Shown here: positions 19,228 through 39,793 of the stretch, piece by piece
Layout of the letters: the number at the start of each line of letters is the position of its first letter
Numbering within the stretch: the first letter of the stretch is position 1
Assembly (NCBI GenBank): GCA_949299535.1
Contig: CASGAQ010000005.1
Location: forward strand, 1 to 64,000
Origin: an uncultured Eubacteriales bacterium
Lineage (GTDB): Bacteria > Bacillota > Clostridia > Oscillospirales > CAG-272
Direction: 5' to 3'
DNA length: 64,000 bases
Translations under genes and position numbers: made by a program
Notes under the pieces: model-generated
The model's database searches: none
What the model was told of the DNA's origin: nothing
The model's input: only the letters and a program-made list of their open reading frames with translations

Positions 19228-19320
19228 AACAATCTCATCTATCGGGAATTGGCACCTTGCAAAAAACAGGTTGCCGGGCTTCACAGGGCCTGTCCCTCCA
19301 CCTCTCTTGATAAGATTGTT
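19228..19320 (-). promoter_or_regulatory. SAM-I (S-box) riboswitch
   Basis: On the minus strand the S-box core is clear: CAAGAGAGGTGGAGGGAC, the GCCC-TGTGAAGCCCGGCAACC segment and GGTGCCAATTCC, closed by a P1 helix (CAATCTTATC with GATGAGATTG). The downstream terminator indicates transcriptional control. Confidence 0.96.
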
Positions 19321-21079: not shown

Positions 21080-21112
21080 ACTTAATACCTCTCATAGTGA
21101 GAGATCCTTTCT

Positions 21113-21222
21113 TTTTTCATCCGGACTGTAACCGTCGGCACAGGATTTTCACCTGTTCGGGCAACCTTTCGCTGCTTCGCGGGCTATACCGCCGATATGG
21201 AATTTCACCATTCCCCAAAGAA
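21113..21222 (-). promoter_or_regulatory. FMN riboswitch (RFN element)
   Basis: On the minus strand the RFN core segments are present in order: GGGGAATGGTGAAATTCC, ATCGGCGGTATAGCCCGCGA, GGTTGCCCGAACAGGTGAAA, CCGACGGTTACAGTCCGGAT. A terminator follows, so FMN should switch ribU off. The rest of the 21041-21402 spacer holds a TATGTAT-gcatg-ATACATA palindrome (21249-21267) and the tuf terminator. Confidence 0.96.
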
Positions 21223-21330
21223 GCCGCCAGATAAGCGGCAAATCAGCTTATGTATGCATGATACATACAAAAACTTTAAATATAAAATTCAAAAATCAGG
21301 CATATAGACAAAAGCAAGCCTGAATATGAC

Positions 21331-37853: not shown

Positions 37854-37890
37854 AAGGTAGGAACAAAGCGTTCCTACCTTTTCTTTTTTT
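37854..37890. terminator. tRNA-Ser(GCU) terminator, bidirectional
   Basis: AAGGTAGGAAC (37854-37864) pairs with GTTCCTACCTT (37870-37880), followed by TTCTTTTTTT. The stem also lies just past the stop of the convergent gene at 37889. Confidence 0.88.
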
Positions 37891-38689
37891 ATGTCGCCAC
37901 CTTCTGTATAGGCACATATTCGGGGACGGGGTCTGCCGCCTGTTCAGGTGCTTCCTCTTCCTCGTCTTCCTCCTCTTCAGGTTCAGGATGCGCGTCGAAG
38001 TACTGCATCGCCTGATTCATGAGGTCGGTCTGGTCGTCCATATAGTTTACGGTGTCAAAGACGATATTCTCGTAGCCGAACTTGTAGCCCGTAAAGCCGT
38101 TCATTACAACGGCGAGGAGCTTGAGCATACAGGATGCAAAAATCACCCATGTAGGCTCTACGACCATGTCCAGAACGATAATACTCATGACGAGCGATAT
38201 CAGGAAGGTCGAGACGAACTTCACGCCAAAGTTAATGCTCTTTTTGGTCTCAGGCTTCGTTCCGAGCGGAGCGCGGCGGCTTGAGCCTCTGCCGCGCTTC
38301 ATAATCATCTCAGGAGTGAGCTTTACGGGCTTTATGGCGTTTGCTTTTATGAGTGCCGCCTTCTGAACCTTGGAGAGCTTCGGGTCTTTCTCGATGGTCT
38401 CCTCATCCAGTCCGAGCCACTTTTTGCGATATTCCTTATATCCAAAGCCTACGACTGCCAGAACCGACATTCTTGCGTTCTTCAGCTCGTCGTCGATATA
38501 GTACCTGCAGAACTCGTGGAGTCTGGTCTGACGCTGAGCGTCGATGATATCTTTGTATGCAATGGTCGTTTCACCAGTTTGTATATTGAGAGCGTGCGAC
38601 TTGAAGATCATGGCGTTTTCTTCAAAATGCAGACGCCCTCCTACGGCTTCACTTCCTCTGAACAAATTAGCGGCTATGATTTTTTTCAT
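37889..38689 (-). CDS. GRAM/PH-like domain membrane protein, accessory
   Basis: A 266-residue protein starting MKKIIAANLFRGSEAVGG with GGAAAG before the ATG. Longer reading upstream crosses a tRNA fragment and is rejected. Residues ~1-50 (GGRLHFEENAMIFKSHALNIQ, then IAYKDI) look like a GRAM/PH-type domain. A charged region follows, then two hydrophobic helices (about 165-215), and the last 35 residues are an acidic EPEEEEDEEEE tail. I cannot name a function. It stands alone between two tRNA-Ser loci beside an integrase remnant, so it may be leftover cargo of an integrated element. Confidence 0.7.
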   Translation of the reverse strand: MKKIIAANLFRGSEAVGGRLHFEENAMIFKSHALNIQTGETTIAYKDIIDAQRQTRLHEFCRYYIDDELKNARMSVLAVVGFGYKEYRKKWLGLDEETIEKDPKLSKVQKAALIKANAIKPVKLTPEMIMKRGRGSSRRAPLGTKPETKKSINFGVKFVSTFLISLVMSIIVLDMVVEPTWVIFASCMLKLLAVVMNGFTGYKFGYENIVFDTVNYMDDQTDLMNQAMQYFDAHPEPEEEEDEEEEAPEQAADPVPEYVPIQKVAT

Positions 38690-38761: not shown

Positions 38762-38818
38762 TGGCGGAGAGGAAGGGATTCGAACCCTTGTGGGGTTGCC
38801 CCCAAACGGTTTTCGAAC
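38762..38818 (-). pseudogene. tRNA-Ser 3' half
   Basis: Read on the minus strand, this carries the 3' half of a serine tRNA from the anticodon loop on: GAAAACCGTTTG, a variable arm GGGGGCAACCCC, a T-arm with GGTTCGAATCC, CCTCTCC, G and CCA. The 5' half is missing; the plus strand runs on directly into an integrase gene fragment. The acceptor strand CCTCTCC would pair with GGAGAGG, as found in the 5' halves at 39321-39362 and 39703-39744. Confidence 0.85.
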
Positions 38819-39033
38819 GAAACGGGCTGAAAAAGATCCGCTTCCACGATCTAAGGCACTCCTGCGCCTCGCTGATGCTGGCAAACGATATTTCCATGAA
38901 AGAGATTCAGGAATGGCTTGGCCATAGCAATATCAGTACCACGGCAAATATTTATGCGCACGTGGACAGCGAAAGCAAGCGAGAGAGTGCCAAAATCATC
39001 GACAAGGTTCTGTCATCAGAAGAAGCCGTATAA
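38812..39033 (+). pseudogene. tyrosine recombinase (phage-type integrase) C-terminal remnant
   Basis: The frame encodes FERNGLKKIRFHDLRHSCAS, then EIQEWLGHSNISTTANIYAHVD and a short tail to the stop. These hold the catalytic HxLRH, the second His (GHS) and the nucleophile Tyr of tyrosine recombinases. Only the last ~74 residues remain; upstream in frame is tRNA sequence, so the catalytic N-terminal part, with the first Arg, is lost. The join falls at TTTTCGAA, shared by the tRNA anticodon loop and the integrase codons for Phe-Glu. Confidence 0.9.
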
Positions 39034-39034
39034 G

Positions 39035-39067
39035 CAAAAAATAGGGTCAGGACTGCCATCCTGACCC
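39035..39067 (-). terminator. terminator of tRNA-Ser(UGA)
   Basis: On the minus strand GGGTCAGGA, TGGCAG, TCCTGACCC is followed by TATTTTTTGC. It ends the transcript just past the intact tRNA, before the integrase and 3'-half remnants. Confidence 0.88.
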
Positions 39068-39072
39068 CAAAG

Positions 39073-39161
39073 TGGCGGAGAGTGTGAGATTCGAACTCAC
39101 GCGCCGTTGCCGGCAAACGGTTTTCAAGACCGCCTCGTTATGACCGCTTCGATAACTCTCC
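39073..39161 (-). tRNA. tRNA-Ser (anticodon TGA)
   Basis: Acceptor GGAGAGT pairs with ACTCTCC; discriminator G and encoded CCA are present. The anticodon loop CTTGAAA gives TGA, the long variable arm is TTTGCCGGCAACGGCGC, and the T-arm carries GTTCGAATC. It reads UCA and, by wobble, other UCN codons. Its 5' half is repeated three times upstream. Confidence 0.97.
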
Positions 39162-39362
39162 GTGTATCAAACTGACCGTAAGGTCAGCAAATACCAAAGT
39201 ATGAAATTGAGAAAATTGCGAGAAAACTGCGAGATGCCCATCTCGCAAAGTGCAAGAAAAAGTGCGAAAAGCCCAATAAAATCAAGGGTTTTGGGGAGTT
39301 TGCTGTGATCAGAACGATAGTTTTTCAAGACCGCCTCGTTATGACCGCTTCGATACCTCTCC
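39121..39362 (-). repeat. direct repeat copy 1 (tRNA-half unit)
   Basis: A ~240-bp unit: 5' half of tRNA-Ser with acceptor GGAGAGT, ~158 bp of spacer with two hairpins (39172-39187, 39228-39247), then a second 5' half with acceptor GGAGAGG. Almost identical to 39514-39744, with one 11-base insertion (GCGAGAAAACT-like tandem duplication near 39217-39228). Confidence 0.9.
39321..39362 (-). pseudogene. tRNA-Ser 5' half (copy b1)
   Basis: Starts GGAGAGGTATCGAAGCGG on the minus strand and matches the intact tRNA up to the anticodon loop TTGAAAA, then departs. It differs from the intact gene at acceptor position 7 (G for T). Confidence 0.9.
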
Positions 39363-39513
39363 ATTTATGAAACTGTCTTTTGACAGAAATCATCTGATAT
39401 TCAATTGTTTTAGAAATTCTTTTAGAAATGCGCTTTTATGCTGCTTTCGGAGTACCGAAAAAGTCAGGTGTTGCAAGGCTTTTCCCGATTTTTGCGTCTG
39501 CATCGCTCGCAAA

Positions 39514-39554
39514 TTTTCAAGACCGCCTCGTTATGACCGCTTCGATAACTCTCC
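39514..39554 (-). pseudogene. tRNA-Ser 5' half (copy a2)
   Basis: Same 5' half as the intact tRNA-Ser(UGA), including acceptor GGAGAGT, ending in the anticodon loop TTGAAAA. Confidence 0.9.
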
Positions 39555-39702
39555 GTGTATCAAACTGACCGCAAGGTCAGCAAATACCAAAGTATGAAAT
39601 TTAGAAAACTGCGAGATGCCCATCTCGCAAAGTACAAGAAAAAGTGCGAAAAAACCAATAAAATCAAGGGTTTTGGGGAGTTTGCTGTGATCAGAACGAT
39701 AG

Positions 39703-39744
39703 TTTTTCAAGACCGCCTCGTTATGACCGCTTCGATACCTCTCC
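39703..39744 (-). pseudogene. tRNA-Ser 5' half (copy b2), promoter-proximal
   Basis: Acceptor GGAGAGG, ends in the anticodon loop at the same base as the other halves. It begins about 20 bases from the -10 of the strong promoter, where a functional tRNA gene would be expected. Confidence 0.9.
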
Positions 39745-39764
39745 GTATTTAACATAGCTTTGAT

Positions 39765-39793
39765 ATTATACCACGCAAACTCACTTTTGTCAA
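39765..39793 (-). promoter_or_regulatory. consensus sigma-A promoter of the tRNA-Ser array
   Basis: TTGACA (39793-39788), 17 bases, TATAAT (39770-39765) on the minus strand. It would transcribe three tRNA halves before the intact tRNA-Ser(UGA), a precursor of about 700 bases. The 39794-39879 stretch beyond shows nothing else. Confidence 0.9.

What the first reader, a model, noticed from the sequence alone, without database searches (positions are those of the whole stretch)
38762..39793. Serine-tRNA array with three 5' halves all broken in the anticodon loop
Downstream of one consensus promoter (39765-39793) lie, in minus-strand order, a tRNA-Ser 5' half (39744-39703), a second (39554-39514), a third (39362-39321), then an intact tRNA-Ser(UGA) (39161-39073) and, past a terminator, a tRNA-Ser 3' half (38818-38762). 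All three 5' halves stop at the same point, the TTGAAAA anticodon loop, and the 3' half starts there. The anticodon loop is a classic crossover site of tyrosine integrases, and an integrase fragment lies beside the 3' half. Two of the 5' halves have acceptor GGAGAGG, which matches the CCTCTCC of the orphan 3' half but not the intact tRNA (GGAGAGT/ACTCTCC), so they could be parts of one split gene. A strongly transcribed precursor carrying tRNA halves is unusual.
Basis: partly seen in the sequence, partly recalled or inferred. Interest (0 to 1): 0.66.

Follow-up and report, generated by a model that had tools for sequence, protein, structure and literature searches.

The report
Nested tRNA-replacing mobile elements
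The three broken serine-tRNA halves are scars of mobile elements that repeatedly cut the host's tRNA gene in two and brought their own replacement copy, so that this probably essential gene has passed from one invader to the next; such layered arrays turn out to be common in gut Clostridia.

Summary
In detail: three tRNA-Ser 5' halves, an intact tRNA-Ser(UGA), an integrase remnant and an orphan 3' half, all broken at the anticodon loop, behind one promoter. Relatives explain it. Integrative elements insert by tyrosine integrase into the 7-bp anticodon loop of tRNA-Ser(UGA/CGA), leaving the host's 5' half at one end and its 3' half at the other. They carry a complete replacement tRNA-Ser gene about 150 bp inside the left end, without its own promoter. 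The replacement is the target of the next element, so insertions nest and 5' halves accumulate at about 190-bp steps.
Evidence: in 12 of 12 genomes where both ends were found, the outermost 5' half and the orphan 3' half rejoin into a matched tRNA-Ser, one in a closed chromosome. Across 74 spacer families the downstream tRNA travels with the spacer; the upstream half does not. The innermost spacer tracks the adjacent integrase; outer ones do not. The window's inner unit is 98% identical to an element elsewhere whose integrase is complete.
Closest known: tRNA-dependent lysogeny of actinobacteriophages. New here: non-phage elements, promoter capture, serial nesting, prevalence in Clostridia.

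The parts
39765..39793 (-). host tRNA promoter TTGACA-17-TATAAT, the only promoter-like site of the array
   Evidence: 12/12; same position before the uninterrupted gene in same-genus G002
39704..39744 (-). outermost tRNA-Ser 5' half (A1, acceptor GGAGAGG): left junction of the first insertion, most likely the original host gene
39555..39703 (-). left-end remnant of element 1 (spacer type alpha)
39514..39554 (-). 5' half A2 (GGAGAGT) of the replacement tRNA of element 1, split by element 2
39363..39513 (-). left-end remnant of element 2 (spacer type beta; same type in L003/L004, L012, L120, L202; its end plus a complete tRNA also on viral-collection contig L030)
39322..39362 (-). 5' half A3 (GGAGAGG) of the replacement tRNA of element 2, split by element 3
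39162..39321 (-). left-end remnant of element 3 (spacer alpha, 98% to L178 over the unit)
39073..39161 (-). intact tRNA-Ser(UGA) A4.B4, brought by element 3
   Evidence: ARAGORN; identical tRNA in L178
39042..39069 (-). terminator-like hairpin behind the replacement tRNA, part of element 3
38815..39033 (+). C-terminal remnant of the tyrosine integrase of element 3 (complete, 415 aa, in L178)
   Evidence: PF00589
38762..38814 (-). orphan tRNA-Ser 3' half (acceptor CCTCTCC), preceded by core TTCGAAAA at 38818-38811: right junction; deletion point of the element bodies

Best explanation
This is the scar of at least three nested insertions of integrative elements that depend on replacing the tRNA they break. 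Each element's tyrosine integrase recombines a 7-10 bp core in its attP site with the anticodon loop (CTTGAAA or CTCGAAA) of tRNA-Ser. The host gene is cut in two and rebuilt at neither junction: the 5' half ends up at the left end, the 3' half at the right end. The element carries a full tRNA-Ser gene about 150 bp inside its left end, between putative integrase arm sites and usually next to the integrase gene. That gene has no promoter of its own and is presumably transcribed from the host tRNA promoter through the left end. It is also a fresh target, so a second element inserts into it, then a third, leaving one 5' half about every 190 bp. In the window the bodies of all three elements are gone; only left ends, the last replacement tRNA, about 200 bp of integrase and one 3' half remain. 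Shown by sequence: junction position, both halves, matched halves, element-borne tRNA, nesting, integrase association. Inferred: read-through transcription, essentiality of the tRNA, order of deletions.
For: Orphan 3' halves starting at the same loop in many relatives. Outermost 5' half + orphan 3' half give a tRNA-Ser with 7/7 acceptor pairs in 12 of 12 genomes, incl. closed chromosome G611. Complete elements of 15.5, 23.5, 30 and 92 kb on single contigs. Within spacer families the following acceptor is shared in 76% of pairs, the preceding one in 30%; 18 clusters against 2. L067: host half, then a half and a whole gene of a foreign tRNA-Ser lineage. Innermost spacer vs integrase Mantel r 0.66, 0/2000; outer spacers -0.16. 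Orphan 3' halves followed by an integrase in L102, L103, L105, L107 = nesting. L178 aligns to the window's inner unit at 98% with a complete integrase; the preceding half differs. Empty site in same-genus G002. Promoters only before the outermost half.
Against: No expression, excision or transfer data. Most genomes are fragmented MAGs. In G003 the two orphan 3' halves do not match their 5' halves one to one. The right flank of the window's 3' half could not be matched to the empty site of a relative, so whether it is the host's or element 2's half is open. 13 of 41 loci with over 1.5 kb downstream have no integrase within 2.5 kb.
Confidence: 0.93

Rival explanations
1. Simple tandem duplication or slippage of the tRNA 5' part, with no element involved.
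For: The window contains a 382-bp imperfect tandem repeat at 97-98%, so the second alpha unit could in principle be a duplication.
Against: 153 distinct spacers in 74 families all join exactly at the anticodon loop; acceptors differ between halves in 54 of 90 arrays; orphan 3' halves and integrases accompany them; the two spacers following the type-2 acceptor halves of the repeat differ (beta versus tRNA).
Confidence: 0.02
2. Ordinary islands that carry a 3' half and rebuild the host tRNA at one junction (Islander type), later decayed.
For: Integrase next to an intact tRNA and a displaced 3' half downstream.
Against: Such islands leave one fragment; here both a 5' and a 3' fragment flank the element and the intact gene lies inside, with its own acceptor and anticodon-stem letters.
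Confidence: 0.02
3. A functional leader or regulatory RNA array built from tRNA halves.
For: One strong promoter in front; terminator-like hairpins in spacers; structured units derived from the 5' half upstream of some arrays.
Against: Complementarity of spacer to half is not above shuffles (mean z 0.1); spacer identity follows the integrase, not the host.
Confidence: 0.02
4. A split tRNA gene whose halves are joined in trans, as in some Archaea.
For: A 5' half and the 3' half have matching acceptor strands.
Against: An intact tRNA of the same isotype is present; in complete elements the halves lie 15-92 kb apart; only the outer pair matches.
Confidence: 0.01

Closest known systems
tRNA-dependent lysogeny of actinobacteriophages (Guerrero-Bustamante and Hatfull 2024, PMC10865867), with prophage Lj965 of Lactobacillus johnsonii named there as a possible case
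   Different: Here the examined elements are ICEs or islands; the tRNA sits in the attachment region itself without a promoter; the replacement tRNA is reused as the target, giving natural nested arrays (second-round integration was only a speculation there).
tDNA islands with one displaced fragment (Islander, PMC4383910)
   Same: Tyrosine integrase, crossover at the anticodon loop, tRNA fragment as signature.
   Different: Islander islands rebuild the gene from a carried fragment and leave one fragment; here both halves are left and a whole gene is carried.
tRNA substitution by prophage-like sequences in Sinorhizobium meliloti (PMC11476347)
   Same: Host tRNA gene reported as substituted by a foreign-lineage tRNA from an integrated element.
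   Different: No nested 5'-half arrays in the passages read.
tRNA gene disruption by integrated elements in Caldiarchaeum (PMC3293823)
   Same: Integrated mobile elements and tRNA fragments at one tRNA locus.
   Different: Proposed there as a route to split tRNAs and introns; here an intact replacement gene is present.

Membership tests
tRNA-dependent lysogeny / integration | Tyrosine-family integrase encoded by the element | tested here: met
   PF00589 and SAM-like N-terminal domains in elements of G116, G124, G125; fragment in the window; adjacent in 28 of 41 loci
tRNA-dependent lysogeny / integration | attB in a host tRNA gene with only a short common core | tested here: met
   7-10 bp shared at CTYGAAA between right-end sequence and 5' half
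tRNA-dependent lysogeny / integration | Functional host tRNA not rebuilt at either junction | tested here: met
   5' half followed by element sequence at one end, element sequence followed by 3' half at the other, 12 genomes
[quoted passage not shown]
   ARAGORN tRNA-Ser 150 bp inside the left end; travels with the spacer family
tRNA-dependent lysogeny / integration | The element's tRNA is required for viable integrants | not testable with these tools
   needs an integration assay
tRNA-dependent lysogeny / integration | The element is a temperate phage | tested here: not met
   Relaxase, T4SS coupling proteins, restriction or metabolic cargo in the elements examined; so it works like it but is not lysogeny
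Islander-type tDNA island | Target gene rebuilt at one junction, a single displaced fragment at the other | tested here: not met
   two displaced fragments and an internal whole gene
Archaeal split tRNA | Halves with complementary leaders, trans-spliced to the only tRNA copy | tested here: not met
   intact tRNA-Ser present; halves 15-92 kb apart in complete elements

The most novel reading that the evidence does not exclude
A large class of conjugative and other integrative elements in Clostridia that take over a probably essential tRNA gene by promoter capture: the promoterless replacement tRNA is expressed only after insertion behind the broken host gene, makes the element's left end undeletable, and is itself the next element's target, so the gene changes owner again and again and the array keeps a countable record of past invasions.
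Probability: 0.65. Interest if true: 0.72.

Novelty: new variant of a known kind. Interest (0 to 1): 0.63.

Why it matters
It answers an open question of the 2024 work (how far tRNA-dependent integration reaches beyond actinobacteriophages) with many Clostridia and non-phage elements, and shows in nature the second-round insertion into an element-borne tRNA that was only guessed there. It means that the tRNA-Ser genes of many gut Clostridia belong to mobile elements, that 5'-half arrays count past invasions, that island finders expecting one displaced fragment can miss or misplace these elements, and that assemblies tend to break here.

Tried and rejected
attC-like or regulatory hairpin between 5' half and spacer: the first folds looked suggestive, but complementarity over 153 spacers equals shuffles. 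Known RNA family in the arrays: Rfam gives only tRNA and sub-threshold noise. Promoter inside the spacers: none above chance. The gene at 37889-38689 as a host right-flank marker: no homologue next to tRNA-Ser in same-genus genomes, so the right flank could not be compared. Viral contigs: only one IMG/VR record has two halves in the pattern. Classical 3'-half islands, tandem duplication and trans-spliced split tRNA were considered and set aside for the reasons given under rivals.

Full report
What is there. On the minus strand, from one perfect promoter (39793-39765), come three tRNA-Ser 5' halves (39744, 39554, 39362), an intact tRNA-Ser(UGA) 39161-39073, a terminator, an integrase C-terminus (on the other strand) and an orphan 3' half 38814-38762. 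Each half ends at the anticodon loop CTTGAAA.

The same anatomy is widespread. A search of relatives found arrays of tRNA-Ser 5' halves at about 190-bp steps in several genera, for tRNA-Ser(UGA) and tRNA-Ser(CGA). With the exact pattern, 29 of 295 species genomes of the window's order have it, against 1 of 398 (the window's own genome) in an even sample of the phylum. In 90 of 116 loci the last half is the 5' half of an intact tRNA-Ser; most of the others stop at the end of the sequence held.

The two halves of the broken gene. Relatives hold orphan 3' halves that start exactly at the same loop. Where both ends were found, the outermost orphan 5' half and the orphan 3' half give a tRNA-Ser with 7/7 acceptor pairs in 12 of 12 genomes (the window and the pairs of G611 and G125 read), mostly better than the intact gene's own 5' half would: G079 GGATAGG/CCTATCC, G116 GGAGAAG/CTTCTCC, L169 GCAGGCG/CGCCTGC, G684 GCAGAGA/TCTCTGC, G611 GCAGACG/CGTCTGC; in G118 it is the anticodon stem that tells outer from inner. 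G611 is a single-contig 2.69-Mb chromosome with the element spanning about 30 kb, so assembly error is excluded there. Further elements of 15.5, 23.5 and 92 kb lie on single contigs of G124, G125 and G117.

The tRNA belongs to the element. Over 153 distinct spacers in 74 families, spacers of one family found in different loci share the acceptor of the FOLLOWING tRNA in 76% of pairs but that of the PRECEDING half in only 30% (means over 25 clusters; 18 clusters one way, 2 the other). In L067 the host 5' half is followed by a half, and then by a complete gene, of a different tRNA-Ser lineage. Spacer and integrase go together: Mantel r 0.66 for the innermost spacer (0 of 2000 permutations), -0.16 for outer spacers at the 13 loci with two or more. 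Repeats in the innermost spacer recur on the far side of the tRNA next to the integrase (a shared 10-mer in 53% of own against 11% of foreign pairs), as expected of integrase arm sites; that they bind integrase is inference.

Nesting. Four orphan 3' halves are followed by an integrase in the same position as behind intact tRNAs (L102, L103, L105, L107): the tRNA of an older element has been split by a newer one. This predicts the order A1-A2-A3.B3 and, further right, B2 and B1.

The window. L178, a contig of another uncultured Clostridia genome, aligns from 39362 to 38810 at about 98%: left end, tRNA, terminator and integrase are the same element, while the preceding 5' half differs in three letters, and in L178 the integrase runs on to a 415-aa frame. 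In the window the element is cut off where the integrase meets the core of the orphan 3' half (TTTCG|TTCGAAAACC), a deletion either by integrase action on a similar core (CTCGAGAA in L178) or by microhomology (inference). Same-genus genome G002 has the same left flank (adenylosuccinate synthetase and SDR genes) with a single uninterrupted tRNA-Ser directly behind its promoter, i.e. an unoccupied site. So the window most simply records three insertions: alpha; beta into alpha's tRNA; alpha again into beta's tRNA; then loss of the bodies. That the second alpha unit arose by duplication of the 382-bp stretch cannot be fully excluded, but L178, L202 and L226 carry the same alpha-tRNA unit behind different halves.

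Transcription. Promoters with at least 10 of 12 consensus letters lie upstream of the first half in 40% of arrays (4% in shuffles) and in spacers at the chance rate (2.6 against 2.5%). The replacement gene therefore most likely lives off the host promoter; read-through is not shown.

What the elements are. G117's 92-kb element has a MobA/VirD2 relaxase, a T4SS coupling protein and a T2SSE ATPase; Sinanaerobacter's has a CD1115-type VirD4 protein and arsenic genes; G125's has type I restriction genes, G124's a transporter and enzymes. An HTH_17 protein lies near an end of several, excisionase-like in G124. They are ICEs and islands rather than phages.

Comparison with the known. The logic is that of tRNA-dependent lysogeny (PMC10865867): short core, tRNA not rebuilt, element tRNA of the same isotype. 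Those authors speculate that a second plasmid may use the plasmid tRNA as attB and ask how common the phenomenon is outside actinobacteriophages. The present elements are not phages, carry a promoterless tRNA inside the attachment arm, and are stacked naturally. Classical islands (PMC4383910) rebuild the gene and leave one fragment; that is not met here. No paper found describes nested 5'-half arrays, within the open-access library searched.

Limits. No expression or genetics; mostly MAGs; exact patterns give lower bounds; the order of deletions in the window and the identity of its 3' half (host's or element 2's) are inferred.

Noticed in passing
L094:908-1088 and 1103-1283, L229, L040, L136, L168, L233, L069, L078, L023, L179 (between promoter and outermost half): A conserved structured unit of about 165 nt built on a tRNA-Ser 5' half whose D-loop is replaced by an insert (GAAGTGG|GGACG...ACAGGA|CATAACGGGGC); 12 copies, 10 aligned at 77% identity, 6 pairs with changes on both sides; no Rfam match in the loci searched. 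Possibly an orphan 5' half turned into a small RNA.
   Followed up: partly
L057:12-270, L072:1254-1392, L074:18385-18514, L085:18613-18646, L086:1269-1408, first unit of L047: Another kind of array: about 105-bp units with a hairpin inserted after CATAAC of the 5' half and the acceptor letters mostly of the following tRNA; no integrase was found directly next to most of them.
   Followed up: partly
own genome G000:C14:34445-34611 (L058): The tRNA-Ser(CGA) of the same genome also has one 5'-half scar, 78 bp upstream, and sits at a contig end.
   Followed up: no
many contigs, e.g. G007:C43, G004:C111, G021:C77, L125, L129, L152: Assemblies break at these arrays unusually often, probably because of the repeated halves and variable elements, so array lengths are underestimated.
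   Followed up: no
L030:1988-6896 (IMGVR_UViG_3300031555_007811): The 10-kb record starts inside a beta-type left end with a complete tRNA-Ser, then an HTH gene and three consecutive large ORFs that look like serine recombinases.
   Followed up: no
window 38810-38818 against L178 oriented 1337-1345: The integrase gene itself contains a core-like CTCGAGAA at the point where the window's element is deleted, suggesting integrase-made deletions at pseudo-cores.
   Followed up: partly
window 21105-21226 and 19232-19316, minus strand: FMN and SAM riboswitches, ordinary.
   Followed up: no
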